The notes beneath the pieces are model-generated. The model was not told the origin of the DNA. It saw nothing but the letters and a program-made list of their open reading frames with translations, and searched no databases. From Luteimonas huabeiensis HB2 (lineage in GTDB: Bacteria; Pseudomonadota; Gammaproteobacteria; Xanthomonadales; Xanthomonadaceae): a stretch of 64,000 bases of DNA. This document shows positions 33,147 to 48,195 of this stretch, in pieces. Numbering within the stretch: the first letter of the stretch is position 1; every line of letters begins with the position of its first letter. A program made the position numbers and the translations under genes. Where the stretch lies: positions 124,001 to 188,000 of the forward strand of contig NZ_JAAN01000035.1 in assembly GCF_000559025.1 (NCBI RefSeq), in the 5' to 3' direction.

Positions 33147-34198
33147 GCCGTGGCCCCCATGCGCTCCAGCCGGTAGCTGCCGTCGAGGATGCGCTGCACC
33201 CAGTCCTGATTGGCCAGGTACCAGTCGACCGTCTTGGCGATGCCGCTGTCGAAGTCGTGGCGCGGGCGCCAGCCGAGTTCGTCGCGCAGCTTGGAAGCGT
33301 CGATGGCGTAGCGCCGGTCGTGACCCGGGCGATCGGCGACGAAGGCGATCTGGCTGCTGCGCGGCCGGCCGTCCTCGCGCGGGCGGCGCTCGTCGAGCAG
33401 GCGGCAGATCGTGCGCACGACCTCGATGTTCTCGCGCTCGGCATCGCCGCCGACGTTGTAGGTCTCGCCCACCTGCCCCTTCGCCAGCACCGTGCGGATC
33501 GCTTCGCAGTGATCGGTCACGAACAGCCAGTCGCGCACCTGCCGGCCGTCGCCGTACACGGGCAACGGCTCTCCGGCCAGCGCCTTGGCGATCGTCAGCG
33601 GAATGAGCTTCTCCGGGAAGTGATAGGGCCCGTAGTTGTTGGAACAGTTGGTGGTGAGCGTCGGCAGGCCATAGGTGTGGTGGAAGGCGCGCACCAGGTG
33701 GTCCGAGGCGGCCTTGGAGGCCGAATACGGCGAGTTCGGCGCGTACGGGGTGGTCTCGGTGAACTTGCCGGTCTCGCCGAGCGAGCCGTAGACCTCGTCG
33801 GTGGACACGTGCAGGAAGCGGAACGCCGCCTTGACCTCCCCGTCGAGCGCCTTCCAGTAATCGCGCACGGCCTCCAGCAGGGCCAGGGTACCGACCACAT
33901 TGGTCTGCACGAACGCCGCCGGTCCGTCGATGGACCGATCGACGTGACTTTCGGCGGCGAAGTTGAGCACCGCATCGGGCCGATACTCGGAAAGCAGGCG
34001 CGCCACCAGCGCGCGGTCGCCGATGTCGCCGTGCACGAACACGTGGTCCGGATTGCCCTCGAGCGAGGCCAGCGTGTGCAGGTTGCCCGCATAGGTCAGC
34101 GCGTCGAGGTTCACCACGCGCGCGCCCTGGCGCACCGCCTCGAGTACGAAGTTGCCGCCGATGAAGCCGGCCCCGCCGGTCACGAGCCAGGTTGGCAC
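33143..34198 (-). CDS. rfbB: dTDP-glucose 4,6-dehydratase
   Basis: 351 aa. First committed step to dTDP-rhamnose. NAD loop [21 protein letters not shown], the [13 protein letters not shown] catalytic block, [14 protein letters not shown] with Tyr/Lys, [14 protein letters not shown], and [11 protein letters not shown]. The start is a GTG at 34198 with AAGGAG 8 bases upstream. First gene of rfbBACD; divergent from etfB across 210 bases. Confidence 0.96.
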
Positions 34199-34332
34199 TG
34201 GGTAGATCTCCTTGTGGGGGCGCAACGCGCCGAGTCGAGGTAAAGCCGCTGAAACAGGATATACGCTTCCCGGCGTCCGCCGCCCGGCCAAAGCTGAACT
34301 CAGGGCCGGTCGCACGGCCGCCCCCCAGCCGC

Positions 34333-34338
34333 TAGAAT
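34333..34338 (+). promoter_or_regulatory. Possible -10 element for etfBA
   Basis: TAGAAT in the 210-base divergent space between rfbB and etfB, about 70 bases before the etfB ATG. The -35 region is not recognisable, so this is tentative. Confidence 0.3.
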
Positions 34339-34408
34339 CCCGGGGTTCGCCCCGGGCCGGCCGCCGCGGCCGGGAGAGACCCGCCAGCATTCAAGGAATC
34401 CCGCTCTG

Positions 34409-35155
34409 ATGAAGATCCTCGTCGCCTACAAGCGCGTGGTGGACTACAACGTCCGCATCCAGGTCAAGCCGGACGGCTCCGGCGTCGTCACCGACGGCGT
34501 CAAGCTCTCGCCAAACCCGTTCGACGAGATCGCGCTGGAAGAAGCCCTGCGCCTGCGCGACAAGGGCGTCGCCAGCGAGGTCGTGGTCGCCACCATCGCC
34601 CCGGCGGACGCCCAGCCGCACCTGCGAAACGGCCTGGCCATGGGCGCCAACCGCGCCATCCACGTGGTCAGCGACCGGGCCATCCAGCCGCTGACCGCGG
34701 CCCGCACCCTGCTCAAGCTGATCGAGAGGGAGCAGCCCGGGCTGGTCCTGCTGGGCAAACAGGCCATCGACGACGACGCCAACCAGACCGGGCAAATGCT
34801 GGCCACGTTGTGGTGCCGCCCGCAGGCCACCTTCGCATCGAAGCTGGAGGTCGCGGGCGACAAGGCCACCGTGATCCGCGAGGTGGACGCCGGCCTGGAG
34901 ACCCTGGAAGTGGACCTGCCGGCGGTGGTCACCACCGACCTGCGCCTCAACGAGCCCCGCTTCATCAAGCTGCCCGACATCATGAAGGCCAAGAGCAAGC
35001 CGCTGGAAACGATTCCCTTCGCCGATCTCGGCGTCGATCCCGGCGACTTCCTCGAGACCACGCACTATGCCGCGCCCGCCGGCCGCAGCCGCGGTGTGAT
35101 GGTCAAGGATGCCGCCGAACTGGTCGCCAAGCTCAAGGAAAAGGGCCTGCTGTAA
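34409..35155 (+). CDS. etfB: Electron transfer flavoprotein beta subunit
   Basis: 248 aa. MKILVAYKRVVDYNVRIQVK start, the AMP-site and DLRLNEPRFIKLPDIMKAKSK signature with the recognition loop toward acyl-CoA dehydrogenases, ending in a KLKEKGLL tail. Carries electrons from acyl-CoA dehydrogenases to ETF-QO (23966-25609). Followed by etfA after 89 bases. Confidence 0.96.
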   Translation: MKILVAYKRVVDYNVRIQVKPDGSGVVTDGVKLSPNPFDEIALEEALRLRDKGVASEVVVATIAPADAQPHLRNGLAMGANRAIHVVSDRAIQPLTAARTLLKLIEREQPGLVLLGKQAIDDDANQTGQMLATLWCRPQATFASKLEVAGDKATVIREVDAGLETLEVDLPAVVTTDLRLNEPRFIKLPDIMKAKSKPLETIPFADLGVDPGDFLETTHYAAPAGRSRGVMVKDAAELVAKLKEKGLL

Positions 35156-35244
35156 CCCGTCCCATCGCCGCTTCCGCAGGGAAGCGCGGGGCCGGGGCGC
35201 GCGGCCGACGCCGCCGCGACCCGCCCCACTCTCAGGAGAACGTC

Positions 35245-36183
35245 ATGTCCAAGGTTCTGATCGTCGCCGAGCACCACGAAGGCCGGCTCAACGGCGCCAC
35301 CGCCAAGTGCGTCGCCGCCGCCGGCGCGCTGCAGCCCGAGGCCGTCGACATCGTCGTCCTGGCCGCGGACGCCGCGCCCGTGGCCGCCGAGGCTGCACAG
35401 ATCGAAGGCGTGCGCAAGGTACTGGCGGTCAGCGCCGAGGCCAATGCGCACCCAATCGCGCAGGTGCTGGGGCCGCAGGTGGCCAAGCTCGCCCAGGGCT
35501 ACAGCCACGTGTTCGGCCCCTCCACCACGTTCGGCAAGGACCTGATGCCGGTCGTCGCCGCCCTGCTGGGCACCGCGCAGGTCTCCGACGTGATGGCGGT
35601 GGAAAGCACGCACACCTTCAAGCGCCCGATCTACGCCGGCAACGCGATCGTCACCGTCCAGGCGCCCACCGACCGGCCGGTCGTGGCGACCGTGCGCTCC
35701 GCCTCCTGGCCGGAAGCCGCCCGCGGCGGCAGCGCGGAGGTCGAAGCCGTATCGGTGGAGGCCCAACTGCCCAGCCACACCCGCTTCGTCGGCCTGGCGG
35801 CCGGCAGCAGCGACCGCCCCGATCTGCAGAGCGCGCGCCGCGTCGTCGCCGGCGGCCGCGGCGTCGGCTCGGAGGAGAACTTCCGCATCATCTTCGACTT
35901 CGCCGACAAGCTTGGCGCGGCGGTGGGCGCCTCGCGCGCGGCCGTGGACGCGGGCTACGTGCCCAACGAACTGCAGGTCGGCCAGACCGGCAAGATCATC
36001 GCGCCCGAGCTCTACGTCGCCATCGGCATTTCCGGTGCGATCCAGCACCTGACCGGCATCAAGGACGCCGGCACCATCGTCGCCATCAACAAGGATGCCG
36101 ACGCGCCGATCTTCGAGATCGCCGACATCGGGCTAGTGGGGGATTTGTTCAAGGTGCTGCCGGAGCTGGAAGCGACGCTCTGA
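35245..36183 (+). CDS. etfA: Electron transfer flavoprotein alpha subunit
   Basis: 312 aa. FAD-binding C-terminal half: [56 protein letters not shown], and [27 protein letters not shown] precedes the ATG. etfA is the classic left border of the LPS locus in Xanthomonas. The first polysaccharide gene starts only 24 bases after its stop without a visible terminator, so the glycan genes may be read through from etfBA. Confidence 0.96.
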
Positions 36184-36207: not shown

Positions 36208-37167
36208 GTGCGCCCATTATTGCGTCTAAGCAGCAAGGCCTCGTCCGCTGCATGGCTTTGCGTCGCAGCGGCGTGTTATTTCATCGCGCTGCTCTGGCTG
36301 GAACACGACCTGGAAATCATGAGCCGGTTGCGCTCGATCTCCGGGCCGCTCTTGGCGACGCTGCCGCTGGCCCTCGGCAGCTTCGCTTTGCGTTTTCTCC
36401 GCTGGCGGCTCCTGCTGGAGCGGTCGGGCCATCCCATCGCCCTGTCGAGCTTTTCCGCCTATCTCGCCGGCTTCGCCTTCACGGCCTCGCCCGGAAAAGC
36501 AGGTGAGCTGATCCGGATCCGCTATTTCCTCCGGCAAGGCGTGCCAGCAGCACGGACGATCTCGGCATTCGTCTTCGAGCGGGCATGCGATCTGGCTGTC
36601 GTGCTGGGGCTCGCCGCGGTGGTCGCGGTGTTGGTGCCGGCGTTCGCCCTACTGGCAGTCGTCATCGCCGCGATTCTGGCCGCGATCGTGCTCTGCGCCC
36701 GGGCCCCTCTCGTGCTGCGCCTCCTCCGACGCGGTATCCACGTCAGGGCACCAGGGCACTGGATCGCACGCGCTGCGGCAGCGCTACTGGACGGGCTTGC
36801 CGGCGTCCGCCCATTGCTCGCTTGGCAGACCGTCCGCCCTAGCCTGGGCCTGGGCGCGCTCGCGTGGCTGCTTCCGAGCATCGCGTTCGGCGTGCTGTGC
36901 AAGGCCCTGGGTATCTCGCTCCCCTGGTGGACCCTGATCGGCCTATACCCGGCGGCCATGCTGATCGGCGCTTTGTCGTTCGTGCCTGGCGGCCTGGGAA
37001 CGACCGAAGCGGCGATCGTAGTGCTCCTGGGCACCCTCGGCATAGATTTTCCCGACGCGATAACGGTTGCGATCGCGATCAGATTGGCGACTCTTTGGGT
37101 GTCCATCGTGCTGGGGATGGCATGCCTCGCCTGGCTGGAGTTGCGGCCCGCGCTCGCTAACCGCTGA
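36208..37167 (+). CDS. Flippase-like integral membrane protein (LPG_synthase_TM type)
   Basis: 319 aa with about 8 membrane segments. The [19 protein letters not shown] region, [20 protein letters not shown] and [17 protein letters not shown] are the marks of the lysylphosphatidylglycerol-synthase transmembrane domain family, which includes presumed flippases for polyprenyl-linked sugars. The start is a GTG at 36208. In an operon with UbiA, DprE1 and DprE2 homologues, a role in flipping a lipid-linked sugar (possibly polyprenyl-phosphate-pentose) across the inner membrane is plausible; donor not shown by sequence. GC content drops here relative to etfA. Confidence 0.8.
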
Positions 37168-37197
37168 TCGACCGTCACGGCCGCTGCCTGCGCCGCG

Positions 37198-38580
37198 GTG
37201 GCCGCCCGCGGCCACGCCCGACAACCGCGAGGAGGCCAGCTGCTCGCGCTGCTCGCGCGCAACCCGCTTTATCTCCTGATGCTGCCGCTATGGCTGTTGC
37301 GGGGTAAAGCAGCGCTCAAGCGAGAGCTCGCCCGGCGCGTACAGCTCCCACCCGATGCCCTGCCCTACAACCCGGCAGTGCTTGAACTCCTGAGGACGAC
37401 CACACAACGGCCCAGAGTGCTCTGCACTGCGTCAGACATGCTGCTGGTGGAGCCGATCGCCAAGCACCTTGGGCTCTTCGAGCAGGTCATCGCAAGCGAT
37501 GGGCAACGCAATCTCGCCGGATCACACAAAGCGCAAGCGCTTGTGGACGCATTCGGCGAAAAGAACTTTGATTATGTGGCCAACGGCCGCGTCGACCTCG
37601 AAGTCTGGCGGCACGCATCCGGCGCCTGGGTCGTCAATAACGACACCGCGCTTGCGGAGGCCGTTGCGCGTCTTACTCGCGTTCATGCCCACTGGCCAGC
37701 GCCTGCCCGAGCAAAGGCTTGGCTCAAGGCACTGCGCCTGCACCAGTGGCTGAAAAACCTGCTGGTCCTGGTGCCCCTGGTGATGGCGCATAGAGTGTTC
37801 GAGCCAGACGCTCTTTGGCAGGCCATGATCGCAGTGGTGTCCTTCGGATTGTGCGCATCCGGCGTCTATGTGCTCAACGACCTGCTCGACCTGGTCCCGG
37901 ATAGGCAGCACCCCCGCAAGCGGCAACGCCCATTCGCAGCCGGACATCTGCCGCTTCTGCAGGGGATATTCGCAGCGCCAGCGCTGACGCTCGCGGGATT
38001 GGCCCTCTCCATCGCGTGCGGACTCAATTTCACTCTTGTGCTGTTGACGTACTACGTCCTCACCCTGGCATATTCGCTGCGCTTCAAGCGCATCGTAATG
38101 ATCGACGTCGTCATGCTCGCTGGGCTCTATACGGTGCGCATCATCGGCGGCGCTGTCGCCATCGACGCGGAGCTGTCGTTCTGGCTGCTGGCGTTCTCGA
38201 TGTTCATGTTCCTCTCGCTCGCCCTGCTCAAACGGTATACCGAATTGCACGCCATGCTGGCCAGCGGAAAGAACAAGGCGAGCGGCAGAGGCTATTCCGT
38301 AGAAGACCTGCCGCTCCTCCAATCGCTAGGCGCGGCTTCCGGATACATCGCGGTCATGGTGATGGCGCTCTATATCAATAGCCCGCAGAGTCTGGAGCTG
38401 TATACCCGGCCCCAGGCATTGTGGCTGCTGTGTCCAGTCCTGCTGTACTGGGTGAGCCGTGTGTGGATCGTGGCCCATCGCGGCCAGATGCACGACGACC
38501 CGATCGTCTTCGCCGCTACCGATCGCGTCAGCCAAGTGGTTGTCGCGCTCTGCGGCATCTTCCTGCTGAGCGCTATCTGA
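37198..38580 (+). CDS. UbiA-type polyprenyl phosphoribosyltransferase with N-terminally truncated HAD domain
   Basis: 460 aa from a GTG at 37198. The C-terminal half is a UbiA prenyltransferase: NDLLDLVPDRQHPRKRQRP with the Asp metal motif, and MIDVVMLAGLYTVRIIGG; about 8 membrane segments. This subgroup includes decaprenyl-phosphate 5-phosphoribosyltransferase. The N-terminal part is a HAD phosphatase-like domain: VLCTAS (motif II), GSHKAQAL (Lys motif III), FDYVANGRVDLEVW (motif IV). The usual motif I, DxDGT, is absent: an in-frame stop at 37165-37167 bounds the frame, and the roughly 30 residues before homology begins (QLLALLARNP) are Arg/Ala/Gly-rich and unlike the family. The phosphatase should therefore be inactive. 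The stop overlaps the next start (TGATG). Confidence 0.82.
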   Translation: MAARGHARQPRGGQLLALLARNPLYLLMLPLWLLRGKAALKRELARRVQLPPDALPYNPAVLELLRTTTQRPRVLCTASDMLLVEPIAKHLGLFEQVIASDGQRNLAGSHKAQALVDAFGEKNFDYVANGRVDLEVWRHASGAWVVNNDTALAEAVARLTRVHAHWPAPARAKAWLKALRLHQWLKNLLVLVPLVMAHRVFEPDALWQAMIAVVSFGLCASGVYVLNDLLDLVPDRQHPRKRQRPFAAGHLPLLQGIFAAPALTLAGLALSIACGLNFTLVLLTYYVLTLAYSLRFKRIVMIDVVMLAGLYTVRIIGGAVAIDAELSFWLLAFSMFMFLSLALLKRYTELHAMLASGKNKASGRGYSVEDLPLLQSLGAASGYIAVMVMALYINSPQSLELYTRPQALWLLCPVLLYWVSRVWIVAHRGQMHDDPIVFAATDRVSQVVVALCGIFLLSAI

Positions 38581-39884
38581 TGCCGCGAGCAGGCGAGTCC
38601 TGGGGCAGATATCCCCGCGTCGAGCAGCGTATGGTGCGGCTCGTCGACCGCGACGCCGCCATGCCCGCTTTCGACGGACACGCACTGCCCCACGGGAACG
38701 GCCGGAGCTACGGCGACAGCTGCCTCGATCCCGGCGGCACGCTGCTGCATGCGCGCGGGCTGGACCGCTTCATCGCCTTCGACCCGGCCACGGGCATCCT
38801 GCGCTGCGAGGCCGGGGTCACCCTGGCGGAGATCATCGAACTGGTCTTGCCTCTGGGCTGGTTCCTGCCGGTGACGCCCGGCACCCGCTACGTGACGGTC
38901 GGCGGGGCCATCGCCAACGACGTACACGGCAAGAACCACCATCGCGTCGGCACCTTCGGCCATCATGTGCGCTCGCTGGAGCTGTTGCGCAGCGACGGCA
39001 GCCGCCGGAACCTCGTTCCCGGGGCGTCCGGCGGATGGTTCGAGGCGACCGTGGGGGGCCTCGGGCTCACCGGGCTCGTCACCTGGGCCGAACTGCAGCT
39101 GCGACGTGTGCCCGGCCCCTACCTGGAGACGGAGAACGTCCGCTTCGGCAATCTGGACGAATTCTTCGCGCTCTCGCGGGAGAGCGCCGACCGCTTCGAG
39201 TACAGTGTCGCCTGGATCGACTGCCTGGCGAGCGGGCACGCCTGCGGCCGCGGGCACTTCACCCGCGCCGACCACGCGACGCAGCTGCTTTCCAAGCGGC
39301 CGCCCGCCCCTGGACAGGGACTAGCGATCCCGCTGACCCCGCCTGTTTCGATGGTCAACCGGCTGACGCTGCGGCCCTTCAACGCCGCCTACTACTGGCG
39401 GCAGCCCGCGCCGCGCAAGCGGCAGACGAGCCACCTGCTGCCCTTCTTCTACCCGCTGGACGGCATCCGGGACTGGAACCGCATGTACGGACCGAACGGT
39501 TTCCTCCAGTACCAGTGTGTGCTGCCCCCATCGGAGGCGCACGCAGGGATCGCCGCATTGCTCGCCGAGATCGCCAAGAGCGGCAGCGGCTCCTTCCTCG
39601 CGGTGCTGAAGGAATTCGGCGGCCGCCCCTCGCCGGGCATGCTGTCGTTTCCCCGCGCCGGCACCACGCTCGCACTGGATTTCCCGAATACCGGAGACAG
39701 CGTGCTCCAACTGCTCGGACGCTTGGATCGCATCGTCGACGAGGCAGGAGGCGCGATCTATCCTGCCAAGGATGCGAGAATGCCGGGCGCTTCGTTCAGG
39801 CGGGCGTACCCCCGCTGGACCGACTTCCGCGATTTCGTCGATCCACGCCTTTCCTCCGGCCTTTGGCGCCGAGTCATGGAGTAG
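38580..39884 (+). CDS. DprE1-like FAD-dependent polyprenylphosphoryl-ribose 2-oxidase
   Basis: 434 aa. FAD-binding oxidoreductase of the VAO type. GNGRSYGDSCLDPGG and TPGTRYVTVGGAIANDVHGKNHH (residues about 100-121) match DprE1 of mycobacteria closely, as do RFEYSVAWIDCLASG, PNGFLQYQCVLP and YPAKDARM with the active Lys at about 397. DprE1 oxidises polyprenylphosphoryl-beta-D-ribose to the 2-keto form. The residue aligned with the benzothiazinone-target Cys387 of M. tuberculosis is Ala365. Start ATG at 38580 overlaps the upstream stop; DprE2 homologue follows after 2 bases. Confidence 0.88.
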   Translation: MPRAGESWGRYPRVEQRMVRLVDRDAAMPAFDGHALPHGNGRSYGDSCLDPGGTLLHARGLDRFIAFDPATGILRCEAGVTLAEIIELVLPLGWFLPVTPGTRYVTVGGAIANDVHGKNHHRVGTFGHHVRSLELLRSDGSRRNLVPGASGGWFEATVGGLGLTGLVTWAELQLRRVPGPYLETENVRFGNLDEFFALSRESADRFEYSVAWIDCLASGHACGRGHFTRADHATQLLSKRPPAPGQGLAIPLTPPVSMVNRLTLRPFNAAYYWRQPAPRKRQTSHLLPFFYPLDGIRDWNRMYGPNGFLQYQCVLPPSEAHAGIAALLAEIAKSGSGSFLAVLKEFGGRPSPGMLSFPRAGTTLALDFPNTGDSVLQLLGRLDRIVDEAGGAIYPAKDARMPGASFRRAYPRWTDFRDFVDPRLSSGLWRRVME

Positions 39885-39886
39885 AG

Positions 39887-40615
39887 ATGCAACGCGTTCT
39901 CATCATCGGCGCCACGTCGGCGATCGCGGAGGCCGCAGCGAGGCGCTTCGCCGCCCGCGGCGCCGCCATCCATCTGCTGGGCCGCCAGCACGCGCGGCTT
40001 CAGGCCATCGCCGACGATCTCGGCACGCGCGGCGCCCGCGTCAGCATTGGCATCCTGGACGTCAACGACGTCGACGAGCACGGCCAAGCGCTCGACGCCG
40101 CCTGGACCGAGCTGGGCGGCGTCGATGTGGCCCTGATCGCCCACGGCACCCTTCCAGACCAGGACGCGTGCGACGCATCGGTGGATCTGGCGCTGCGCGA
40201 GTTCGAGACCAACGGCACGGCGACGATCGCGCTGTGCGCCGCGCTGGCCCAACGACTCCGGGCCGGCAGCACGCTCACCGCAATCTCGTCCGTCGCCGGC
40301 GACCGGGGGCGTGCCAGCAACTATCTTTACGGCAGCGCCAAGGCAGCCGTCAGCGCCTACCTGAGCGGTTTGGGGCAACGCTTGCGCCCGTCCGGCATCA
40401 ACGTGCTGACCGTCAAGCCCGGCTTCGTCGATACGCCCATGACTGCGTCCTTCCAAAAGGGGCCGCTCTGGGCGACGCCGGACAGGGTGGGACGGGGCAT
40501 CGTCCGGGCGATCGATCGTCGCAAGGCCGTGGTGTATCTGCCCGCGTTCTGGTGGGCGATCATGTACGTCATCCGCGCCATCCCCGAGCCAATCTTCCGC
40601 AGGATCCGCCTCTGA
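39887..40615 (+). CDS. DprE2-like short-chain dehydrogenase
   Basis: 242 aa. NAD(P) loop GATSAIAEAAARRFA, AHGTLPDQ, SSVAGDRGRASNYLYGSAKAAV with Ser/Tyr/Lys catalytic residues, and KPGFVDTPMTAS. Its C terminus is hydrophobic (VYLPAFWWAIMYVIRAIP), as in DprE2. Right after a DprE1 homologue it should reduce the 2-keto intermediate to polyprenylphosphoryl-beta-D-arabinose, completing the epimerisation. Pathway assignment is by family and gene order. Confidence 0.87.
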   Translation: MQRVLIIGATSAIAEAAARRFAARGAAIHLLGRQHARLQAIADDLGTRGARVSIGILDVNDVDEHGQALDAAWTELGGVDVALIAHGTLPDQDACDASVDLALREFETNGTATIALCAALAQRLRAGSTLTAISSVAGDRGRASNYLYGSAKAAVSAYLSGLGQRLRPSGINVLTVKPGFVDTPMTASFQKGPLWATPDRVGRGIVRAIDRRKAVVYLPAFWWAIMYVIRAIPEPIFRRIRL

Positions 40616-40616
40616 C

Positions 40617-41561
40617 ATGACCGACAAGCACGCGAAGATCGTCATCACCGGCGCAGCCGGCCTGGTAGGCCAGAACCTGATCGTTGAGCTCGAACAGCAG
40701 GGCTATACTCGGCTGGTCGCGATCGACAAACACGCGCACAATCTCGGCATCCTCCAGGGCCTGCATCCGCAGGTTCGCACCGTCCTGGCCGATCTCGCCG
40801 AACCCGGGGAATGGTCGGAAGAGTTCCGGGACGCAAGCTGCGTGGTGCAACTGCATGCGCAGATTACCGGGAAGACGACCGAGATATTCAACAGGAACAA
40901 CCTGACCGCGACCCGGCACGTGCTCGACGCCATGAAAGCGGCTGCCGTGCCCTACCTGGTGCACATCAGTTCGTCGGTCGTCAACTCGGTGGCTGTCGAT
41001 GACTACACCAACACCAAACGTGCTCAGGAGGAAATGGTGGTCTCCAGCGGGCTTCGCCATTGCGTGCTGCGTCCCACGCTGATGTTCGGCTGGTTCGACC
41101 CCAAGCACCTCGGCTGGCTATCGCGCTTCATGGCCCGGACCCCGGTGTTCCCGATCCCGGGAGACGGACGATTCATGCGGCAGCCGCTGTACGAGCGCGA
41201 CTTCTGCCGCTGCATCGTCAAGTGCATCGAGCGGGAACCGGACGGCGAGATCTACGATATCGTCGGTGCCACAAGGATCGACTATGTCGACATCATCCGC
41301 ACCATCAAGCGAGCCAAAAACCTGCGTACCATAATCGTGCACATTCCTATCGGGCTGTTCGCCTTTCTGCTGCGCACCTATTCCCTATTCAGCACCAAGC
41401 CGCCGTTCACCGCGGACCAACTGAAGGCGTTAAGCGCGGGAGACGATTTCAAGGGGGTTGATACGGAGGCCGTCTTTGGCGTGAAACAAACGCCATTCGA
41501 AGACGCCATCCTCGAAAGCTATACCCACCCCACGTATTCGAGCATCGTGCTGAAGCGATGA
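40617..41561 (+). CDS. NAD-dependent epimerase/dehydratase family protein
   Basis: 314 aa. NAD loop GAAGLVGQNLIVEL, HISSSVVNSV with the Ser, YTNTK (Tyr/Lys pair), RPTLMFGWFDP, and a C-terminal substrate part with FMRQPLYERDFCRCIVKC. The second half contains a hydrophobic stretch (VHIPIGLFAFLLRTYSLF) that suggests membrane association, unusual for soluble sugar-nucleotide epimerases, and fits a lipid-linked sugar substrate. The exact reaction is not known. Begins right after the DprE2-like gene. Confidence 0.8.
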   Translation: MTDKHAKIVITGAAGLVGQNLIVELEQQGYTRLVAIDKHAHNLGILQGLHPQVRTVLADLAEPGEWSEEFRDASCVVQLHAQITGKTTEIFNRNNLTATRHVLDAMKAAAVPYLVHISSSVVNSVAVDDYTNTKRAQEEMVVSSGLRHCVLRPTLMFGWFDPKHLGWLSRFMARTPVFPIPGDGRFMRQPLYERDFCRCIVKCIEREPDGEIYDIVGATRIDYVDIIRTIKRAKNLRTIIVHIPIGLFAFLLRTYSLFSTKPPFTADQLKALSAGDDFKGVDTEAVFGVKQTPFEDAILESYTHPTYSSIVLKR

Positions 41562-41592
41562 CCAGGGCGCCGTTCAAGAGCCGAACCAACTG

Positions 41593-42855
41593 ATGCATAT
41601 TTTGAAGGATCCTAGCCCGACCACCGATCAGCGGGAGTGGTGGGCACGAAAATCGGCATCGGCGGCGCTCCTGCTAGCGCTTGTCGTTGTCGTTCTATAC
41701 TTTCGCCGACCCGATCAGTTTTTTTCGCCCTACATTTGGGTCGAAGATGGAACCGTCAGCCTCAAGCAGTATCTCGAGCACGGGTGGCGCTATTTGGGTG
41801 AGCCCGTCGCGGGCTATCTCATTCTACCCTCGAAGCTGATCCAGCTCGCCGCGCTCTGGATCTCCGGCCTTTACTATCCGGAACTGGCGATGATCGGCAC
41901 GATAGTGTTCACGTGGCTGGTCCTATGCTGCATCGCTTATGCACCGACCACGCTGCGCTGGAAGTATGTCTGCGCCATTGCGCCGCTCGTCATCCCCACT
42001 GATTCCGAAGTTTTCGGGACCTCGCATTATGCATTCTGGTGGGGGTCACTATTACTGATTCCCGCCCTGCTTTGGCGCCCCGATGCCGGGAAGCTCCCGC
42101 TCAGATTAACAATTTCAGCACTTGGTGCGCTTTCATCACCATTGGTCATCGCACTACTACCGCTATTCGTGATCAATGCGTTATGGAGACGCCGCCCAAG
42201 TGAGTGGATTCTGCTAATCTGCATGGCTGGCGGCGCCGGCCTGCAATACTATTTTATTAAGTCCACAGGAACGCCGGGGGCCGGCCTGCCTGAGCACATA
42301 TCGATACTTGCAGTGGCTCAGAAATTTCTAGGGTATTTCGTATGGTGGCCCGCCTCCGGCAATGTGGCTTTGGCGCTGTCTGGAATAGTCTTGGCAGCGC
42401 TCTTGGCGGGGGCGGCATCCAGATGGCGCGAGATCCAATGGACGCATGTCGTCCTTGCCGGCGCTTTCGTGGTTTCTGTGGTGATTTCGATCGCCCGCGC
42501 GCCGGTGGAGATCATCGACCCCTTCTTCGCCGGACCACGCTACTTCTTTTATCCCTACATCCTGCTCAGCTGGACCTTGCTGCAGGTGGCATCGATCTCC
42601 CACAGGATCTTTGCTGGTGTTCTCCTGTCTCTACTTCTCGCGAGCACGCAGGCATTCGGCGCTCATGCGCCCCGCGGCCATCACCCCATGGACTGGCGCC
42701 TTGAGCTAGCAGAGTGCGCGGCGTCACGTGGCGACGAATACCTACTGCCAATCCACTTCGCCGGACATCGGGACCAGCTTTGGCACTTCAAGATCCGCCC
42801 CTCTGACTGTGCACGCCTGATCAGCCAGGGAGCCTTCGCGCGATCGCGGAGTTGA
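41593..42855 (+). CDS. Polytopic membrane protein, probable GT-C glycosyltransferase
   Basis: 420 aa with roughly 10 hydrophobic segments. The first external loop has FSPYIWVEDGTVSLKQYLEHGW, with an acidic ED pair where GT-C transferases using polyprenyl-phosphate sugars place their catalytic acid. No named family is evident. Clearly lower GC and more A/T third positions than the surrounding chromosome (for example 42000-42360), suggesting acquisition from elsewhere. The stop overlaps or nearly overlaps the next open frame. Confidence 0.65.
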   Translation: MHILKDPSPTTDQREWWARKSASAALLLALVVVVLYFRRPDQFFSPYIWVEDGTVSLKQYLEHGWRYLGEPVAGYLILPSKLIQLAALWISGLYYPELAMIGTIVFTWLVLCCIAYAPTTLRWKYVCAIAPLVIPTDSEVFGTSHYAFWWGSLLLIPALLWRPDAGKLPLRLTISALGALSSPLVIALLPLFVINALWRRRPSEWILLICMAGGAGLQYYFIKSTGTPGAGLPEHISILAVAQKFLGYFVWWPASGNVALALSGIVLAALLAGAASRWREIQWTHVVLAGAFVVSVVISIARAPVEIIDPFFAGPRYFFYPYILLSWTLLQVASISHRIFAGVLLSLLLASTQAFGAHAPRGHHPMDWRLELAECAASRGDEYLLPIHFAGHRDQLWHFKIRPSDCARLISQGAFARSRS

Positions 42856-42902
42856 TCGATGTCGGTTCATGCCCGCATCTGCCGAGAACAGGAATAGCCC
42901 CC

Positions 42903-45083
42903 ATGGCGACCCACCGGCTCGTGGCTGGCGTCTTCGTTCGCCTGTCGGCCTATCTTGTGTTCCTTGCAGTGGCGATGCATTTCGCGGGACCCGCGCATTC
43001 GTCACCCGTAGCCGTCGAATTCGAGGGTGGCTGCGCCACATCCAGCTCACCCTACCTAGCGGACGATAGCAGACTCGAATCGGGACGCATCTCGTACTGT
43101 GATAATGGCGACGCCTGGACGGGCCGCATCCAGTCCACTGAAGTTCCAGCGGGCACGACCGCCATTCCGCTTCTATACGCCGGCTACCCATCTCTGGAAG
43201 GTATCGAGCTGACTCTCCAGGGTCCCGCCGGCATCCACCCCATAACCCTTCCCAACAGCCAGGAATCGTGGACGTCAGCGGTGCTGGAGGTTCCGCCGGA
43301 GTTCCAGCCGCATCCGTTTAAAATCGTGGCGGATGACAACGCCGCCGGCTTTGGCGGATGGATTGGACTAGGCGTAGCCAGGCATACTTCGACCAAAACC
43401 ATCCTGCTCGGTGCGCTGGCGCTAGCATTGCCGCTGGCCCTGGCTCATTTATGGTGTGCCACCACGTCGACCCTAGTTGCTGGGCGGGTCGGCATGCCAG
43501 GCTGGAGAGCGGCCTGCGCGATTCTGGTCCTTGGCGGTGCCGGCGCAGTCTCTTTTTTTGCGTGGTGGGCATCCCCTGCCGCCGGCTTCGCTACCTCGAG
43601 CGTACTATTGGTCGCACCGGCGGCATGTTACCTGGCCGCAAAGGTGAGGCGCAGGCCTGTGGCTCGCTGGCTTGATGAGAGCACCGCTTTCATGCCTGTG
43701 ACGTTCGCTGCCGCATTTGTTCTCTGGCTCGGCTTGTACCCTTTCGAGTGGGATGGCGCCAGCTGGGAGGTACCGGCGACCCGCTGGGCCGGCCTGCCGG
43801 TCGACAATTGGCTACCGCTTGTTCTCGCTCAAATGCTGGAGTCGGGTTCGCTGATCACGCCTATGGTAGGCGATTGGCTGAGCAGTGATCGTCCACCGTT
43901 GCAGGCCGGCCTCTATCTCATGTTTTTGCCAGCCAAGCTCGCGCCTATCGGCGTCTGGTACCAAGCCCTTGCAACTTGGTTGCAATGTCTCATCCTTGTG
44001 CCCATGGGGCATATGCTGGCAGCCTGGTTCTCCAGCCGTCGCGACAGCGTGCTCGCGATCGCCGCGGTCGTGTTCAGCCCCATCTTCCTCGTGAACACGC
44101 TCTTCGTTTGGCCAAAGCTCCTCGCCGCGACTTTCTGTCTGATCTATCACATCGCTCTGTTCTCTGGCCGGAACGCACAGATGTCCTCACGATGGCTGAA
44201 CTTGGCCGCCGCGCTGGCTGCAGGCTTGGCGATGCTGTCCCACGGCGGCGCGCTTTTTGCGTTGTTGGGCACGACAGTCGCCGCACTCGCCCTGCAGCCC
44301 AAGACCGCGTTCCGACCTCTCTTATCCATCGCGCCGTTGTCGCTGGCCGTATACGCCCCGTGGATGCTATATCAGCGATACATAGACCCGCCCGGAGATC
44401 GTCTGGCAAAGTGGCATCTCGCTGGACAGATCGACGTCGACGACCGGTCTCTCGGCGAAACGCTCGCTGACTCGTATTCCGAGCTCACTCCAAGGACATG
44501 GCTGGAAGGCCGGCTAGAGAACGTCGGACACATCGCGACAGGAACGGTGGACTTTTTCCGCGCTCTCTATGAACTAATGAAGAGCTTCGGCGATCCCATG
44601 GCCCATCGAGCTGCGTGGGAACAGCTCTATGCTGGCAGCTTCTTCCATTTCTCCCACTCGCTTTGGTTCTTCGGTCCCGCCGTGGCAGCCCTCGCTTTGA
44701 TTGTGTTACTTGCACGACGTCGCCGCGTGCCTCCTGGATTCATGGCGGCTTTTTTGGCGACCTGCTGCGGATTGCTCGTTTGGATCGCGGCGATGTTCGA
44801 GCCCGGGTCGGTCTCCGTGCACCAGGGCGCCTATGCATTACCGATGCTCGCGATGCTGATTGTGATGACGTTGACATGGCATGCGGCGCCCGGCCTATTC
44901 CGCAGTCTCGCGCTGTGCAGCATCCTTCTCGCCTTATATGTATTCGCCTTCGACCGCGCTCATTCCGCAGTCGTGCTGCACGGATTTTACGTGGCCGGTG
45001 TTTTTACTCTTGGCACCCTGATATTCGGTGGTTTTCTAAGCAGCACCATACACACTCCCCGATCGCACCCAAGGATTAATTGA
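42903..45083 (+). CDS. Large membrane protein with N-terminal beta domain, GT-C-like
   Basis: 726 aa. Hydrophobic start (LSAYLVFLAVAMHFAGPAHS), then about 140 residues of beta-rich soluble domain on the periplasmic side (VAVEFEGGCATSS..., GRISYCDNGDAW, PEFQPHPFKIVADDN), followed from about residue 180 by about 12 membrane segments. Loops with WDGASWEVP and WLSSDRPPLQAGLYL resemble GT-C/ArnT-like sugar transferases. The ATG at 42903 was chosen; a TTG at 42852 overlapping the upstream stop is possible. A periplasmic carbohydrate-binding-like domain attached to a GT-C core would fit transfer of a lipid-linked pentose to a glycan outside the membrane, but this is inference. Confidence 0.62.
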   Translation: MATHRLVAGVFVRLSAYLVFLAVAMHFAGPAHSSPVAVEFEGGCATSSSPYLADDSRLESGRISYCDNGDAWTGRIQSTEVPAGTTAIPLLYAGYPSLEGIELTLQGPAGIHPITLPNSQESWTSAVLEVPPEFQPHPFKIVADDNAAGFGGWIGLGVARHTSTKTILLGALALALPLALAHLWCATTSTLVAGRVGMPGWRAACAILVLGGAGAVSFFAWWASPAAGFATSSVLLVAPAACYLAAKVRRRPVARWLDESTAFMPVTFAAAFVLWLGLYPFEWDGASWEVPATRWAGLPVDNWLPLVLAQMLESGSLITPMVGDWLSSDRPPLQAGLYLMFLPAKLAPIGVWYQALATWLQCLILVPMGHMLAAWFSSRRDSVLAIAAVVFSPIFLVNTLFVWPKLLAATFCLIYHIALFSGRNAQMSSRWLNLAAALAAGLAMLSHGGALFALLGTTVAALALQPKTAFRPLLSIAPLSLAVYAPWMLYQRYIDPPGDRLAKWHLAGQIDVDDRSLGETLADSYSELTPRTWLEGRLENVGHIATGTVDFFRALYELMKSFGDPMAHRAAWEQLYAGSFFHFSHSLWFFGPAVAALALIVLLARRRRVPPGFMAAFLATCCGLLVWIAAMFEPGSVSVHQGAYALPMLAMLIVMTLTWHAAPGLFRSLALCSILLALYVFAFDRAHSAVVLHGFYVAGVFTLGTLIFGGFLSSTIHTPRSHPRIN

Positions 45084-46373
45084 ATGACACGTTTTGCCGT
45101 TATCGGCTCCGGCCCTATGGGCCTGCGAGCTGCGACCGCGCTAATAGATGCCGGCCATAATGTCGATGTCTACGAGCGTGACGACCGCATCGGCGGCATG
45201 TCCGCGCATTTCGACTTCAACGGGCTCGACATCGAGCGCTACTATCATTTCGTCTGCCGGACCGATTACCCCCTGTTCGATCTCCTGAAGCGCTACGGCC
45301 TATCCGATCGGTTGAAGTGGACGAACACAAAAATGGGCTACTTCTATCGGGGCAAGCTCTACAAATGGGGCTCGCCGCTCGCCCTCTTGGCGTTTCCGCA
45401 CCTAAGCCCGATACAAAAGATACGCTACGCCTTGCATGTCATGCATACGAAGGGGATCCGGGACTGGAGTGCGCTCGACAAGGAAGAAGCAGGGGCCTGG
45501 ATTCGTAAATGGATTGGCGATGGCGCATACGAAGTAATGTGGAGAGACTCCTTCCGGCTGAAGTTCTTCGAGTACGCAGATAACTTGTCAGCGAGTTGGA
45601 TCGGCACCCGGATCAAGCGTATCGCGCTGTCGCGAGAGAGCCTTTTCAAGGAGAGCCTGGGCTACTTAGAAGGAGGCTCGGATCTCGTACTGGATGCCCT
45701 GGCGGGCGATATCCAGGCGCGCGGAGGGCGCATTCTACTGGCCGCCCCGGTCCAGGAAGTGACCACCCAGGACGGGAAAGTCACTGGCATTCTGTCGGCC
45801 CGTGGCTGGGCTGCGTATGACGGCGTGCTCTCTACATCTCCGATTCAGTATGTGCCGCGCATGGTTCCCACGCTGCCTGAAGACTACCGGAGAAAGATCG
45901 AGTCCATCGAAAATATCCCTGTCGCTTGTGTGATCCTCAAGCTCAGGCACGCTATTTCCGATAATTTCTGGATGAACATAAGCGATTCGCGGATTGAAAT
46001 TCCTGGAGTGATTGAGTACAGCAACTTGAATCCACTGGACGGGAAGCAACATATTCTTTACGCCCCCTTCTACATGCCGAAGACGCACCCCAAGTGGAAG
46101 AGTACAGACCAAGCTCTGATCGACGAGGTGGTGAGCTATCTGCCAATGCTCAATTCGTCCTTCGATCCCAGTTGGGTGATGGCGACGAGCTGCCATCGCT
46201 ACGAGTTCGCGCAAACCATCTGTCCGCCCGGCTTCCAGGGTGCCCTTCCCCCGATGGAGTCGCCGATTGCGGGGTTCTACATGGCGGATACCGGATACTA
46301 TTACCCGGAGGACCGATCGATTTCCGAAAGCCTCGACGTAGGTCGCCGTCTTGCCGAGGTAGCCCTGCGTTGA
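45084..46373 (+). CDS. NAD(P)/FAD-dependent oxidoreductase (amine-oxidase-like)
   Basis: 429 aa. Starts TRFAVIGSGPMGLRAATALIDAGHNVDVYERDDRIGGMSAHF, the dinucleotide loop plus the GG doublet typical of the protoporphyrinogen-oxidase/UDP-galactopyranose-mutase-like superfamily. YLEGGSDLVLDAL in the middle and GFYMADTGYYYPEDRSISESLDVGRRLAE at the end contact FAD. Function in the glycan locus unknown; it could rearrange or oxidise a sugar or lipid intermediate. Starts one base after the upstream stop, AAGGA at 45071-45075. GtrA overlaps at its stop. Confidence 0.78.
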   Translation: MTRFAVIGSGPMGLRAATALIDAGHNVDVYERDDRIGGMSAHFDFNGLDIERYYHFVCRTDYPLFDLLKRYGLSDRLKWTNTKMGYFYRGKLYKWGSPLALLAFPHLSPIQKIRYALHVMHTKGIRDWSALDKEEAGAWIRKWIGDGAYEVMWRDSFRLKFFEYADNLSASWIGTRIKRIALSRESLFKESLGYLEGGSDLVLDALAGDIQARGGRILLAAPVQEVTTQDGKVTGILSARGWAAYDGVLSTSPIQYVPRMVPTLPEDYRRKIESIENIPVACVILKLRHAISDNFWMNISDSRIEIPGVIEYSNLNPLDGKQHILYAPFYMPKTHPKWKSTDQALIDEVVSYLPMLNSSFDPSWVMATSCHRYEFAQTICPPGFQGALPPMESPIAGFYMADTGYYYPEDRSISESLDVGRRLAEVALR

Positions 46374-46774
46374 TGGCGTCCCGTCAATTCCTGTTATTCA
46401 TCTTGGCCGGCGGCGTCGCCGCGATCGCGAACTTCGGTTCCCGCATCATTCTCAGCTTGGCACTTCCCTACACCGCGGCGATAGCAGTTGCCTATTGCAT
46501 AGGGATGGCCGCCGCCTTCGCGCTGAATCGCCGTTTCGTGTTTACACACGCGGACAATTCACTGCACTCACAAGCGACGTGGTTCATCTTGGTCAATATA
46601 CTCGCGGTATTGCAGACACTCGCGATAAGCCTGCTGCTGGCACGCTGGCTGTTCCCCGTCATCGGCATGACTTTTTATCCGGAGACCGTTGCGCACGCGT
46701 TCGGAGTCGCGGTGCCTGTGGTCACCAGCTACATAGGGCACAGGGCGCTGACATTCAGGAGTCGGAAGGCATGA
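46373..46774 (+). CDS. GtrA family membrane protein
   Basis: 133 aa, four hydrophobic segments. MASRQFLLFILAGGVAAIANFGSRIILSL, YCIGMAAAFALNRRFVF and VVTSYIGHRALTFRSR are the GtrA hallmarks. GtrA-type proteins are proposed flippases for polyprenyl-phosphate-linked sugars used in O-antigen and cell-wall glycan decoration. Coupled on both sides: its ATG overlaps the oxidoreductase stop (TGATG) and its stop overlaps the next ATG (ATGA). Confidence 0.92.
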   Translation: MASRQFLLFILAGGVAAIANFGSRIILSLALPYTAAIAVAYCIGMAAAFALNRRFVFTHADNSLHSQATWFILVNILAVLQTLAISLLLARWLFPVIGMTFYPETVAHAFGVAVPVVTSYIGHRALTFRSRKA

Positions 46775-48195
46775 CGGTGCACACTGGTGCAAGGACGGGG
46801 CCAGGCCCGGCCCACGAGACTACTGCGCGCCCTTGGCTATTCGTCGGAATCGTTGCACTCTGCGCCATCTTCGTCCGGCTTGTCTACGTACAACTATTTT
46901 CCTCTCCGATGCCGTTCTGGGATCAATGGGATGGCGAGGCAGACCATGTCCTCCGTCCTTGGATCGAAGGGCATTTCGGCATGGAACACCTGTTGCGCGC
47001 CCACAATGAGCACCGGATCCTCCCGACCAAACTGGTCACCATCGTGCTGTACGAGCTCACCGGTCGCTGGAGCAACATGGACGAGGCGCGTTTGAGCGCA
47101 TGCATCTATGGGTTGATTCCAGCAATGCTGCTTTGGAGTGCGACCGTTGGCTCTTACGGCGGTCGCCCGACCTTGGTCCACAAAGCGTTAGCCGCGCTCA
47201 TATTCCTGTTTTCCGTGCTCCCCTTCTCATGGGAGAACACCCTGGTGGGGTTCCAGAGCCAGTTTTACTTCATGCTCGCGGCCAGCATCGCGGCGGTGAT
47301 CCTAGCGGCACGGCACCATAGCAACGTACTCGCAGCAGGGGGCATTTTTCTATTGTCGGCATTCGCCTGTCTCACCATGGCGTCTGGCTTGATCACGCCG
47401 CTTGTGGCGGCCTGCGTTCTCGCGATGGCGTGCGTCTTCTTACCGGGCCGGCGATGGCCTGCCGCGGTCACCAGCGTCCTCCTCCTCGCTATGGCTATCG
47501 CGGCTTATGCCACGACACCGCAGATTCCTCAGCACCAAATCCTTCGTCCGAAAACTGCGATCGCTGTTCTCGATGCGCTCAATCATCTCCTTGGATGGCC
47601 AATTACTGGTTATCATTGGGCCATGTTCTATCTGTGGCTCCCGGCACCGGTGGCCCTGACCTGGCGGGCGGCGCACAAGACGGTGACGCGCACCGACCTT
47701 GTGATGGCGGGACTTTATGGCTGGAGCCTCGTTCAAGCCCTCGCGATCGGCGCGGGCCGCGGCGAAGGCCTTGTCGAGGTGCCCTCCCGCTATGTCGAAC
47801 TCCTAATACCCGGCCTTTTCGCCAATGCCTGGTTCGCTTTGTCCATGCTCGCCGGATGCTTCAGGGAACCGTGGCGCACGCGCATTCCGGCAGCGACACT
47901 ATCAGTGGCGTTCTTCGCCGTCCTGATAGGCGGTCTCTTGGCCCGCACCCCGGCTGACTTCCAACAATTGCGTACGCGCTCGGAAGCGTTGGCAGTACAG
48001 CAATCCAACACCCTTCGATATCTCCGCTCCAACGATCCTGCTGCGCTCGACGTACCCTTCTTCGCCCTCCCCTACCCTGACCACACACGCCTGAAAGCGT
48101 TACTGGATAACCACTCGATCAGGCAGGCGCTTGGTTGGACATCGCCACTCCCGCCGCCCTCGGCAGAGCCCGAAGACGCGCCCGCTGGCAGTTGA
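46771..48195 (+). CDS. Polytopic membrane glycosyltransferase (GT-C-like)
   Basis: 474 aa with about 10-12 hydrophobic segments. First periplasmic loop PMPFWDQWDGEADHVLRPWIEG then LRAHNEHRILPTKLVT; the acidic DQWDGE and HNEHR motifs recur in a family of uncharacterised bacterial membrane proteins in polysaccharide loci, and the acidic residues sit where GT-C catalytic acids are found. Paired with GtrA, it resembles a Gtr-type decoration module (flippase plus specific transferase). C-terminal soluble tail after FQQLRTRSEALAVQQS. Ends 24 bases before the convergent lipoprotein gene. Confidence 0.75.
   Translation: MTVHTGARTGPGPAHETTARPWLFVGIVALCAIFVRLVYVQLFSSPMPFWDQWDGEADHVLRPWIEGHFGMEHLLRAHNEHRILPTKLVTIVLYELTGRWSNMDEARLSACIYGLIPAMLLWSATVGSYGGRPTLVHKALAALIFLFSVLPFSWENTLVGFQSQFYFMLAASIAAVILAARHHSNVLAAGGIFLLSAFACLTMASGLITPLVAACVLAMACVFLPGRRWPAAVTSVLLLAMAIAAYATTPQIPQHQILRPKTAIAVLDALNHLLGWPITGYHWAMFYLWLPAPVALTWRAAHKTVTRTDLVMAGLYGWSLVQALAIGAGRGEGLVEVPSRYVELLIPGLFANAWFALSMLAGCFREPWRTRIPAATLSVAFFAVLIGGLLARTPADFQQLRTRSEALAVQQSNTLRYLRSNDPAALDVPFFALPYPDHTRLKALLDNHSIRQALGWTSPLPPPSAEPEDAPAGS

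What the first reader, a model, noticed from the sequence alone, without database searches (positions are those of the whole stretch)
36208..48195. Possible polyprenyl-phosphate-arabinose (DPA-type) glycosylation island inside an LPS locus
Seen: ten consecutive same-strand genes, mostly coupled or tightly spaced, encoding a flippase-like protein, a UbiA/HAD-type phosphoribosyltransferase homologue, DprE1-like and DprE2-like enzymes, an epimerase, three polytopic GT-C-like proteins, a FAD oxidoreductase and GtrA. Known: UbiA-type phosphoribosyltransferase, DprE1 and DprE2 make decaprenyl-phosphoryl-D-arabinofuranose in mycobacteria, and related gene sets supply D-Araf for type IV pilin glycosylation in some Pseudomonas. 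Inference: this bacterium may decorate LPS, O-antigen or pili with D-arabinofuranose or a derivative. The extra epimerase and FAD oxidoreductase, and three candidate transferases, suggest a product beyond plain arabinose. The combination with an ABC-exported O-polysaccharide is the most unusual system in this window.
Basis: partly seen in the sequence, partly recalled or inferred. Interest (0 to 1): 0.8.

Follow-up and report, generated by a model that had tools for sequence, protein, structure and literature searches.

The report
Extended arabinose-lipid sugar cassette in LPS locus
A ten-gene block in a bacterial surface-sugar locus carries the enzymes that make lipid-linked D-arabinose, plus an extra epimerase and flavin enzyme that travel with that pathway and probably turn the arabinose into another, still unidentified sugar used to decorate the cell surface.

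Summary
The ten same-strand genes at 36208-48195 are real. Family models and active-site residues support UbiA-, DprE1- and DprE2-type enzymes, hence polyprenyl-P-D-arabinofuranose (DPA) synthesis. The block lies in the etfA-metB LPS locus of xanthomonads. Nearly the same gene set was listed in Xanthomonas in 2007 (PMC2238763); the three-component pentofuranose pathway, prototyped on ABC-exported O-polysaccharides, appeared in 2024 (PMC11127046) and left 'more elaborate' Xanthomonas systems open. So the ABC combination is not unusual.

New here: the extra epimerase (G5), with its FAD partner (G8), looks like an obligate add-on to DPA. All 8 G5 genomes of 274 in a class sample have DprE1 and G8; all 16 of 200 in an order sample have the UbiA gene; all 7 G5 plasmids have DprE1 and G8. 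The order UbiA-DprE1-DprE2-G5-G8-GtrA recurs in Alpha-, Beta- and Gammaproteobacteria. A Nod-factor arabinose operon lacks G5/G8. The product is therefore probably not plain arabinose; L-xylose and D-lyxose are untested candidates. Caveats: samples overlap and are related, this copy lacks the HAD nucleophile motif, GT-C folds could not be modelled, no chemistry exists.

The parts
34409..36183 (+). etfB (34409-35155) and etfA (in the frame 34810-36183; ETF domain from about 35254), left border of the xanthomonad LPS locus
   Evidence: Pfam ETF and ETF_alpha; metB/etfA borders described in PMC2238763
36208..37167 (+). G1: LPG_synthase_TM / flippase-like membrane protein, candidate lipid-sugar flippase
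   Evidence: PF03706 E 5.8e-36; homologue in 26 of 80 loci
37198..38580 (+). G2: HAD-UbiA fusion, polyprenyl-phosphate phosphoribosyltransferase; HAD first motif absent in this copy
   Evidence: NF006088 633 bits, cut-off 351; NDxxDxxxD and KRYxEL aligned with M. tuberculosis 8j8j; HAD motif check
38580..39884 (+). G3: DprE1-type FAD oxidase
   Evidence: NF053785 374 bits, below its cut-off of 500; aligned with solved DprE1 at E about 1e-77, HGKNHH and AKDxR kept
39887..40615 (+). G4: DprE2-type SDR reductase
   Evidence: NF005489 311.7 bits, cut-off 267; DprE2 model NF053786 187.9 bits, below its cut-off of 250
40617..41561 (+). G5: extended SDR epimerase; SSS and YxxxK residues at least 97% conserved in 93 sequences
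   Evidence: PF01370; conservation; co-occurrence
41593..42855 (+). G6: polytopic protein, candidate GT-C
   Evidence: hydropathy; relatives in 14 of 80 loci, five of them fused to the G7 N-terminal domain
42852..45083 (+). G7: 743-aa polytopic protein with an N-terminal non-membrane domain (about residues 45-182), candidate GT-C; alternative ATG 42903
   Evidence: family in 3 of 200 order genomes, all 3 with G5
45084..46373 (+). G8: FAD oxidoreductase of the PRK07233 family
   Evidence: NF005560 507.8 bits, cut-off 252; near G5 in 78 of 80 loci
46373..46774 (+). G9: GtrA family, candidate lipid-sugar flippase
   Evidence: PF04138 E 2.6e-17 (longer ORF); 72 of 80 loci
46771..48195 (+). G10: polytopic protein with conserved WDQWD, HNEHR and RY motifs, candidate GT-C
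   Evidence: alignment A2; family in 11 of 200 order genomes, 10 of them with G5
48996..52445 (-). GT2 glycosyltransferase protein of the convergent LPS unit, two GT2 stretches
   Evidence: Pfam Glycos_transf_2
53533..55179 (-). methyltransferase-domain protein of the convergent unit
   Evidence: PF13578
55176..57405 (-). Wzt with C-terminal carbohydrate-binding domain (55176-56612) and a Wzm-like permease (56524-57405)
   Evidence: PF14524 and PF00005; NF050109 44.4 bits, far below its cut-off
57359..58546 (-). metB-type PLP enzyme, right border of the LPS locus
   Evidence: PF01053 E 9.5e-156
26975..34390 (-). galE-type epimerase, UDP-glucose-dehydrogenase type enzyme, CoA transferases, rmlD-, rmlC-, rmlA- and rmlB-type genes
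   Evidence: rml names from Pfam class and order

Best explanation
An extended three-component pentose-decoration system. G2 puts ribose-5-phosphate from PRPP onto polyprenyl phosphate, a phosphatase removes the 5-phosphate, and G3/G4 invert C2 to give polyprenyl-P-D-arabinofuranose (inferred from homology and active-site residues). The G5/G8 pair then converts this lipid-linked arabinose into a further pentose (inferred from co-occurrence; the reaction is unknown). GtrA (G9) and/or G1 flip the lipid-sugar, and the polytopic proteins G6, G7 and G10 act as periplasmic transferases that decorate the O-polysaccharide exported by Wzm/Wzt (inferred from context). No step has been shown chemically for this locus.
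For: NF006088 633 bits over its cut-off; NDxxDxxxD and the R/E pair as in M. tuberculosis 8j8j and with the spacing given for ORF15 in PMC11127046. DprE1 match to solved DprE1 at about 1e-77 over residues 18-423. G5 in 8 of 274 class genomes; all 8 have DprE1 (53 of 274) and G8 (12 of 274). G5 in 16 of 200 order genomes; all 16 have an NF006088 match (49 of 200). G5 in 7 of 72,556 plasmid records; all 7 have DprE1 (64 records) and G8 at 44% identity or more. On a DprE1 tree of 38 rows the G5 label changes 8 times, at least 4 forced by supported branches. The noe region of plasmid IRBL74_p has UbiA, DprE1 and DprE2 homologues but no G5 or G8 match; the C. glutamicum control rang for DprE1 and not for the G8 family. 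The G10 family is in 10 of 16 G5-positive and 0 of 33 G5-negative genomes with an NF006088 match.
Against: HAD motif I is absent in this copy although 62 of 65 relatives show it; the noeC-like protein has no region like the HAD part and its operon still arabinosylates, so this need not be fatal. DprE1 and DprE2 model scores are below NCBIfam cut-offs, though 0 of 274 class genomes reach the DprE1 cut-off. G8 is not itself tied to DPA: 4 of the 12 class genomes with a G8-family match (G066, G084, G227, G274) have neither G5 nor DprE1 in the same samples. G337 has G5/G8 and no DprE1 match; the G335 match is partial with a stop inside. GT-C folds were not shown: structure tool off, no informative Pfam or PDB matches. 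A review records the O-antigen of X. axonopodis pv. citri strain Xcc99-1330 as a rhamnose polymer, no pentose named (PMC8042644, passage), and strain 306 of that pathovar has this gene set.
Confidence: 0.6

Rival explanations
1. Plain D-arabinofuranose system: G2-G4 feed D-Araf to one or more transferases, while G5/G8 make a second, independent sugar for another transferase.
For: Several polytopic candidates and two flippase candidates in one block; in some genomes G5-G8 sit apart from the DPA genes; the G8 family also occurs in 4 of 12 class genomes without DPA.
Against: G5 came with DprE1 in 8 of 8 class genomes, 7 of 7 plasmid records and 8 of 9 further genomes (one shared with the class sample), and with UbiA in 16 of 16 order genomes. 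Among ten neighbouring proteins scanned from six loci without DprE1 nearby, none hit a sugar-lipid synthase family.
Confidence: 0.2
2. The acceptor is type IV pilin or another protein, as in Pseudomonas paraeruginosa, not LPS.
For: Pilin D-Araf is documented there (PMC12369383, passages); a T2SSE-family ATPase gene lies at 60952-62973.
Against: The block lies inside the metB-etfA LPS locus opposite Wzm/Wzt, as in Xanthomonas.
Confidence: 0.1
3. This copy is impaired: without the HAD nucleophile the 5-phosphate stays on and the pathway stalls or leaks.
For: HAD motif I absent here.
Against: The frame stays open and the UbiA half is intact; the D18A variant of ORF15 kept part of its activity (PMC11127046, section 7); the noeC-like protein aligns with G2 only in the UbiA part. 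A local sequencing or assembly error is not excluded.
Confidence: 0.07
4. G8 acts on the polyprenyl chain rather than on the sugar.
For: PRK07233 resembles phytoene desaturase and HpnE models weakly.
Against: Where G5 is present G8 goes with it and with DPA genes.
Confidence: 0.05

Closest known systems
Three-component pentofuranose systems, Citrobacter youngae O1/O2 ORF12-15 (Kelly et al. 2024, PMC11127046; abstract in outline, sections 5, 7, 9, 11, 12 and passages read; supplement not seen)
   Same: UbiA-type polyprenyl phosphoribosyltransferase with a HAD part, epimerisation on the lipid, flippase, polytopic transferase, ABC-exported O-polysaccharide; DprE1/E2 homologues named for Araf cases; elaborate Xanthomonas systems with several epimerases or GT-Cs noted
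   Different: DprE1+DprE2 plus a further epimerase/FAD pair; GtrA and PF03706 proteins in place of a MATE flippase; three polytopic candidates without shared profile; HAD motif missing in this copy
metB-etfA LPS locus of X. axonopodis pv. citri 306, X. oryzae BXO8 and BLS256 (PMC2238763; sections 5 and 7 and passages read)
   Same: Gene set near etfA: integral membrane protein, 481-aa prenyltransferase, oxidoreductase, SDR, 746-aa protein, epimerase, phytoene-desaturase-like protein, GtrA-like protein, 581-aa protein
   Different: Described without a DPA function in the parts seen; different transferase content. A UbiA gene, a flippase-like gene and three oxidoreductases are also named for one X. 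cannabis LPS cluster (PMC12662623, passages)
noe Nod-factor arabinosylation operon (PMC5080398, passages; locus L165, which I matched to it by BN877 tags and gene order)
   Same: UbiA 48%, DprE1 41%, DprE2 41% identity, plus a GtrA-annotated gene
   Different: No G5/G8 match in the 11-kb region, no HAD-like part in the UbiA protein, NoeP-position protein not detectably related to G6, G7 or G10
Mycobacterial DPA pathway (Rv3806c, DprE1, DprE2)
   Same: Homologous synthase and oxidase with shared active-site residues
   Different: C. glutamicum, which makes DPA (recalled), did not ring for the G8 family; the position of the Cys hit by benzothiazinones reads Ala here (role of the Cys recalled)

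Membership tests
DPA (polyprenyl-P-arabinofuranose) biosynthesis | UbiA-type phosphoribosyltransferase with NDxxDxxxD and R/E loop residues | tested here: met
   residues as named in PMC11127046
DPA (polyprenyl-P-arabinofuranose) biosynthesis | DprE1 oxidase | tested here: met
   match to solved DprE1 at about 1e-77 with shared motifs; NCBIfam score below a cut-off that 0 of 274 class genomes reach
DPA (polyprenyl-P-arabinofuranose) biosynthesis | DprE2 reductase | tested here: met
   PRK07102 model over cut-off, DprE2 model below its cut-off; 41% to the noeO-position protein
DPA (polyprenyl-P-arabinofuranose) biosynthesis | D-Araf made on the lipid | not testable with these tools
   needs chemistry
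Three-component pentofuranose system | polyprenyl phosphoribose synthase | tested here: met
Three-component pentofuranose system | HAD phosphoribose-phosphatase nucleophile (in ORF15; the paper says the P. aeruginosa and M. tuberculosis proteins lack this domain, so it is not strictly defining) | tested here: not met
   motif I absent in the three forward frames printed for the window; present in 62 of 65 relatives
Three-component pentofuranose system | flippase for the lipid-sugar | tested here: inconclusive
   GtrA and PF03706 proteins present, no MATE family hit among the ten; activity untested
Three-component pentofuranose system | GT-C transferase (GT136 in the prototype) | tested here: inconclusive
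   polytopic, no informative Pfam or PDB match; GT136 sequences not at hand; structure tool off
UDP-galactopyranose-mutase-like FAD enzymes (for G8) | sequence match to UGM families or structures | tested here: not met
   none among the Pfam hits at 0.01 or the PDB hits at 0.001; PRK07233 is the best model
4,6-dehydratase-type SDR (for G5) | Asp-Glu active-site pair before YxxxK (rule recalled) | tested here: not met
   SSS and YTxxK at least 97% conserved in 93 sequences; no DE pair there

The most novel reading that the evidence does not exclude
The six-gene cassette is the unrecognised route to a rare pentose made on polyprenyl phosphate from D-arabinose. Either G8 is a new furanose-pyranose mutase and G5 a C4 epimerase, giving L-xylose (the C4 epimer of D-arabinose), or G8/G5 form a second oxidase-reductase pair that inverts C3, giving D-lyxofuranose, a sugar that PMC11127046 says is in no solved carbohydrate structure. 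G6, G7 and G10 would then be three new transferase families for it.
Probability: 0.22. Interest if true: 0.8.

Novelty: new variant of a known kind. Interest (0 to 1): 0.55.

Why it matters
The 2024 paper on three-component systems left the function of 'more elaborate' Xanthomonas systems open. The co-occurrence data turn that into a specific question: what do G5 and G8 do to polyprenyl-P-arabinofuranose? The cassette was found in many Xanthomonas and Stenotrophomonas records and on seven plasmids, one typed conjugative, so the answer would bear on O-antigen diversity, phage receptors and the supply of rare-sugar enzymes. It also predicts that looking for D-arabinose alone would miss the product.

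Tried and rejected
Rejected: that ABC export makes the system unusual (the prototype does the same). Rejected: G5 as a 4,6-dehydratase (no DE pair; rule recalled). Not supported: G8 as a classical UGM. Rejected as evidence: the 99.7% profile match between A1 and A3, because A1 held fusion proteins with a G6-type core; without them the match vanished (A4 against A3, probability 3.4). A2 against A3 was negative too. The first DprE1 tree held four wrongly extracted rows (L139-L142); they were dropped and the tree rebuilt. Two loci that I had named for the tree, L038 and L150, are not in it: they did not pass the script's own filter. The G5-minus label of L019 (G005) rests on 17 kb at a contig end only. 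No relative of G5 in viral contigs; one weak UbiA match in a phage record. Literature searches on L-xylose with Stenotrophomonas LPS, lyxose with Xanthomonas LPS, and lyxofuranose gave nothing of use. No paper assigning G5/G8 was seen in the listings. Passages of PMC3391215, PMC12573098, PMC9040725, PMC9416502 and PMC12826051 gave no phenotype that I could tie to these genes. Papers wanted but not held.

Recalled, from no call: that L-xylose is reported in Stenotrophomonas or Xanthomonas O-antigens, the role of the DprE1 Cys, the dehydratase motif rule, that C. glutamicum makes DPA, and the stereochemical relations of D-arabinose with L-xylose and D-lyxose.
Full report
Observation. Ten genes run on the + strand from 36208 to 48195. 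Pfam and NCBIfam give a PF03706 flippase-like protein (G1), a HAD-UbiA fusion (G2, NF006088, 633 bits, cut-off 351), a DprE1-type oxidase (G3), a DprE2-type SDR (G4), an extended SDR epimerase (G5), a PRK07233 FAD enzyme (G8, 507.8 bits, cut-off 252) and GtrA (G9); G6, G7 and G10 match nothing at E 0.01. G2 aligns with the solved M. tuberculosis phosphoribosyltransferase 8j8j, keeping NDxxDxxxD and KRYxEL, the motifs studied by mutation in the Citrobacter enzyme ORF15, where the first mattered most (PMC11127046, section 7). G3 aligns with solved DprE1 from residue 18 to 423 at about 1e-77.

Setting. Upstream lie etfB and etfA; downstream, on the - strand, a GT2 protein with two GT2 stretches, a methyltransferase-domain protein, Wzt with its carbohydrate-binding domain, a Wzm-like permease and metB. 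This is the metB-etfA LPS locus of xanthomonads with two convergent units (PMC2238763, passages and sections 5 and 7). Table 1 of that paper lists nearly the same set in X. oryzae BXO8 and X. axonopodis pv. citri 306: 328/292-aa membrane protein, 481-aa prenyltransferase, 433-aa oxidoreductase, 242-aa SDR, 312/314-aa epimerase, 430/428-aa phytoene-desaturase-like protein, a GtrA-like protein, and membrane proteins of up to 746 and 581 aa. G+C is 0.64-0.69 over 37-41 kb, 0.56-0.62 over 41-50 kb and 0.66-0.73 over 51-60 kb; the dip also takes in the start of the convergent GT2 gene.

Distribution. Within the genus the system is patchy: 3 of 37 genomes, the own one included, have an NF006088 match over the cut-off, and of these G005 has the DPA genes without G5 in the 17 kb read. 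A scan of genome contigs with G5 kept the best 80 of 126 relatives. In the stretches held (up to 10 kb on each side, less at contig ends): G8 in 78 of 80, GtrA 72, DprE1 69, DprE2 69, HAD-UbiA 65, G10-type 28, G1-type 26, G7-type 16, G6-type 14. 65 loci hold all six core genes, 59 of them in the order UbiA-DprE1-DprE2-G5-G8-GtrA on one strand. The same order is on plasmids of Burkholderia stagnalis, Rhizobium tumorigenes, Agrobacterium salinitolerans (typed conjugative) and Rhodobacteraceae SC52, with G5 at about 50-55% and G8 at 44-49% identity to the window.

Dependence on DPA. In a class sample of 274 genomes G5 (E 1e-50) is in 8, G8 (NF005560, 1e-60) in 12, DprE1 (1e-40) in 53 and NF006088 (1e-40) in 62. 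All 8 G5 genomes have G8 and DprE1; 7 of 8 have the NF006088 match (G238, 72% complete, does not). The reverse does not hold for G8: the other 4 of its 12 genomes (G066, G084, G227, G274) have neither G5 nor DprE1, so it is G5, and the G5-G8 pair, that go with DPA. In an order sample of 200, G5 is in 16 and NF006088 in 49, with 16 of 16 overlapping. In 72,556 plasmid records DprE1 (1e-30) is in 64 and G5 (1e-30) in 7; all 7 carry DprE1 and are the same 7 that carry G8 at 44% identity or more (16 records at 1e-5 in all). Hypergeometric values run from 1.2e-6 to 7e-13 but ignore relatedness and overlap. On a DprE1 tree of 38 rows (29 with G5, 9 without) the G5 label changes 8 times, at least 4 forced by supported branches, and is no more clustered than shuffled labels; its bootstrap had not settled. 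So the link does not look like one inherited event.

Contrast with systems that make D-arabinose. The region of plasmid IRBL74_p that I matched to the noe operon by BN877 tags and gene order has a UbiA, a GtrA-annotated, a DprE1-type, a DprE2-type and a NoeP-position gene and no G5 or G8 match at 0.01; arabinosylated Nod factors and their loss on noeP deletion are reported for strain IRBG74 (PMC5080398, passages). In the control list C. glutamicum rang for the DprE1 family but not for the G8 family. So D-Araf by itself does not seem to need G5/G8.

Transferase candidates. The G10 family is in 11 of 200 order genomes: 10 of the 16 with G5, 0 of the 33 with NF006088 but not G5, and one (G504) with neither; in G369 it lies far from the cassette. 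The G7 family is in 3 of 200, all with G5, in G362 far from it. These searches scored only five or six first-look candidates per genome, so counts may be low. A domain of about 140 residues at the N terminus of G7 is found in 21 ORFs of 19 of 80 loci: N-terminal in G7 relatives, before the core in five G6-type proteins and C-terminal in three G10-type proteins. Three cores with no detectable profile kinship (the weak match covers this domain only) thus share one mobile accessory domain inside one kind of cassette, reminiscent of the carbohydrate-binding modules on GT-C enzymes described in PMC11127046. That is indirect support for a transferase role. Pfam hits among members were single and weak and no GT-C structure matched.

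HAD domain. The three forward frames printed for 37140-37320 show no DxDGT motif, while 62 of 65 relatives have it; L080 and L110 read DLDGS, and L096 shows none in the frame examined. Either the phosphatase half is inactive in this strain or the stretch is wrongly sequenced. The noeC-position protein aligns with G2 only in the UbiA part, so a separate phosphatase may serve.

Mechanism. PRPP to polyprenyl-P-ribose-5-P (G2), dephosphorylation, C2 inversion (G3/G4), G5/G8 conversion, flipping (G9, G1), periplasmic transfer (G6, G7, G10) to the Wzm/Wzt-exported polysaccharide. The first steps rest on strong homology, the G5/G8 step on co-occurrence, the last on context. Candidate products: L-xylose would explain why a flavin enzyme and a GalE-like epimerase are both needed (ring change, then C4 inversion); D-lyxofuranose would explain them as a second oxidase-reductase pair. 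Xylose is named with rhamnose in LPS of X. translucens (PMC8042644, passage) and in the title of a cited synthesis paper on S. maltophilia O18 (reference list of PMC11089167); the configuration was not given in what I saw, and neither strain was checked for the cassette. Against this, the review calls an X. axonopodis pv. citri O-antigen a rhamnose polymer.

Verdict. The DPA core is a member of a known kind. The G5/G8 extension is a variant noticed but not explained in print ('multiple candidate epimerases or GT-Cs ... from Xanthomonas', PMC11127046, section 12; its supplementary figures were not seen).

Noticed in passing
window 37168-37240: 5' end of G2 lacks the HAD DxDGT motif that 62 of 65 relatives have; the frame stays open. 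Real loss or local sequence error unknown.
   Followed up: partly
L088 (JAHREJ010000003.1): Record titled Bacillus subtilis SK7B5 carries a cassette with G5 83% identical to the window, among Stenotrophomonas-like scores: probably mislabelled or contaminated.
   Followed up: no
L072 and L075 (CP007444.1, Dyella jiangningensis): The same cassette appears twice in one chromosome record with identical spacing, 224612-245547 and 5276616-5297551; possibly untrimmed overlap of a circular assembly.
   Followed up: no
L165 4567-4989 (noeN position): noeN, proposed in PMC5080398 as a possible phosphatase, appears to be the gene annotated as GtrA family, which would make it a flippase candidate.
   Followed up: partly
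L105 6972-7972, L108 12760-13425, L109 15424-16206, L113 12378-13409: In MAGs of Thiotrichaceae-type bacteria G5-G8 is followed by a methyltransferase and, in L105 and L113, a small protein with a sub-threshold EamA match, hinting at a methylated sugar and another flippase type.
   Followed up: partly
window 41000-50000: G+C falls to 0.56-0.62 against 0.64-0.69 over 37-41 kb, hinting at a separate origin of the extension and transferase genes; part of the convergent GT2 gene shares the dip.
   Followed up: no
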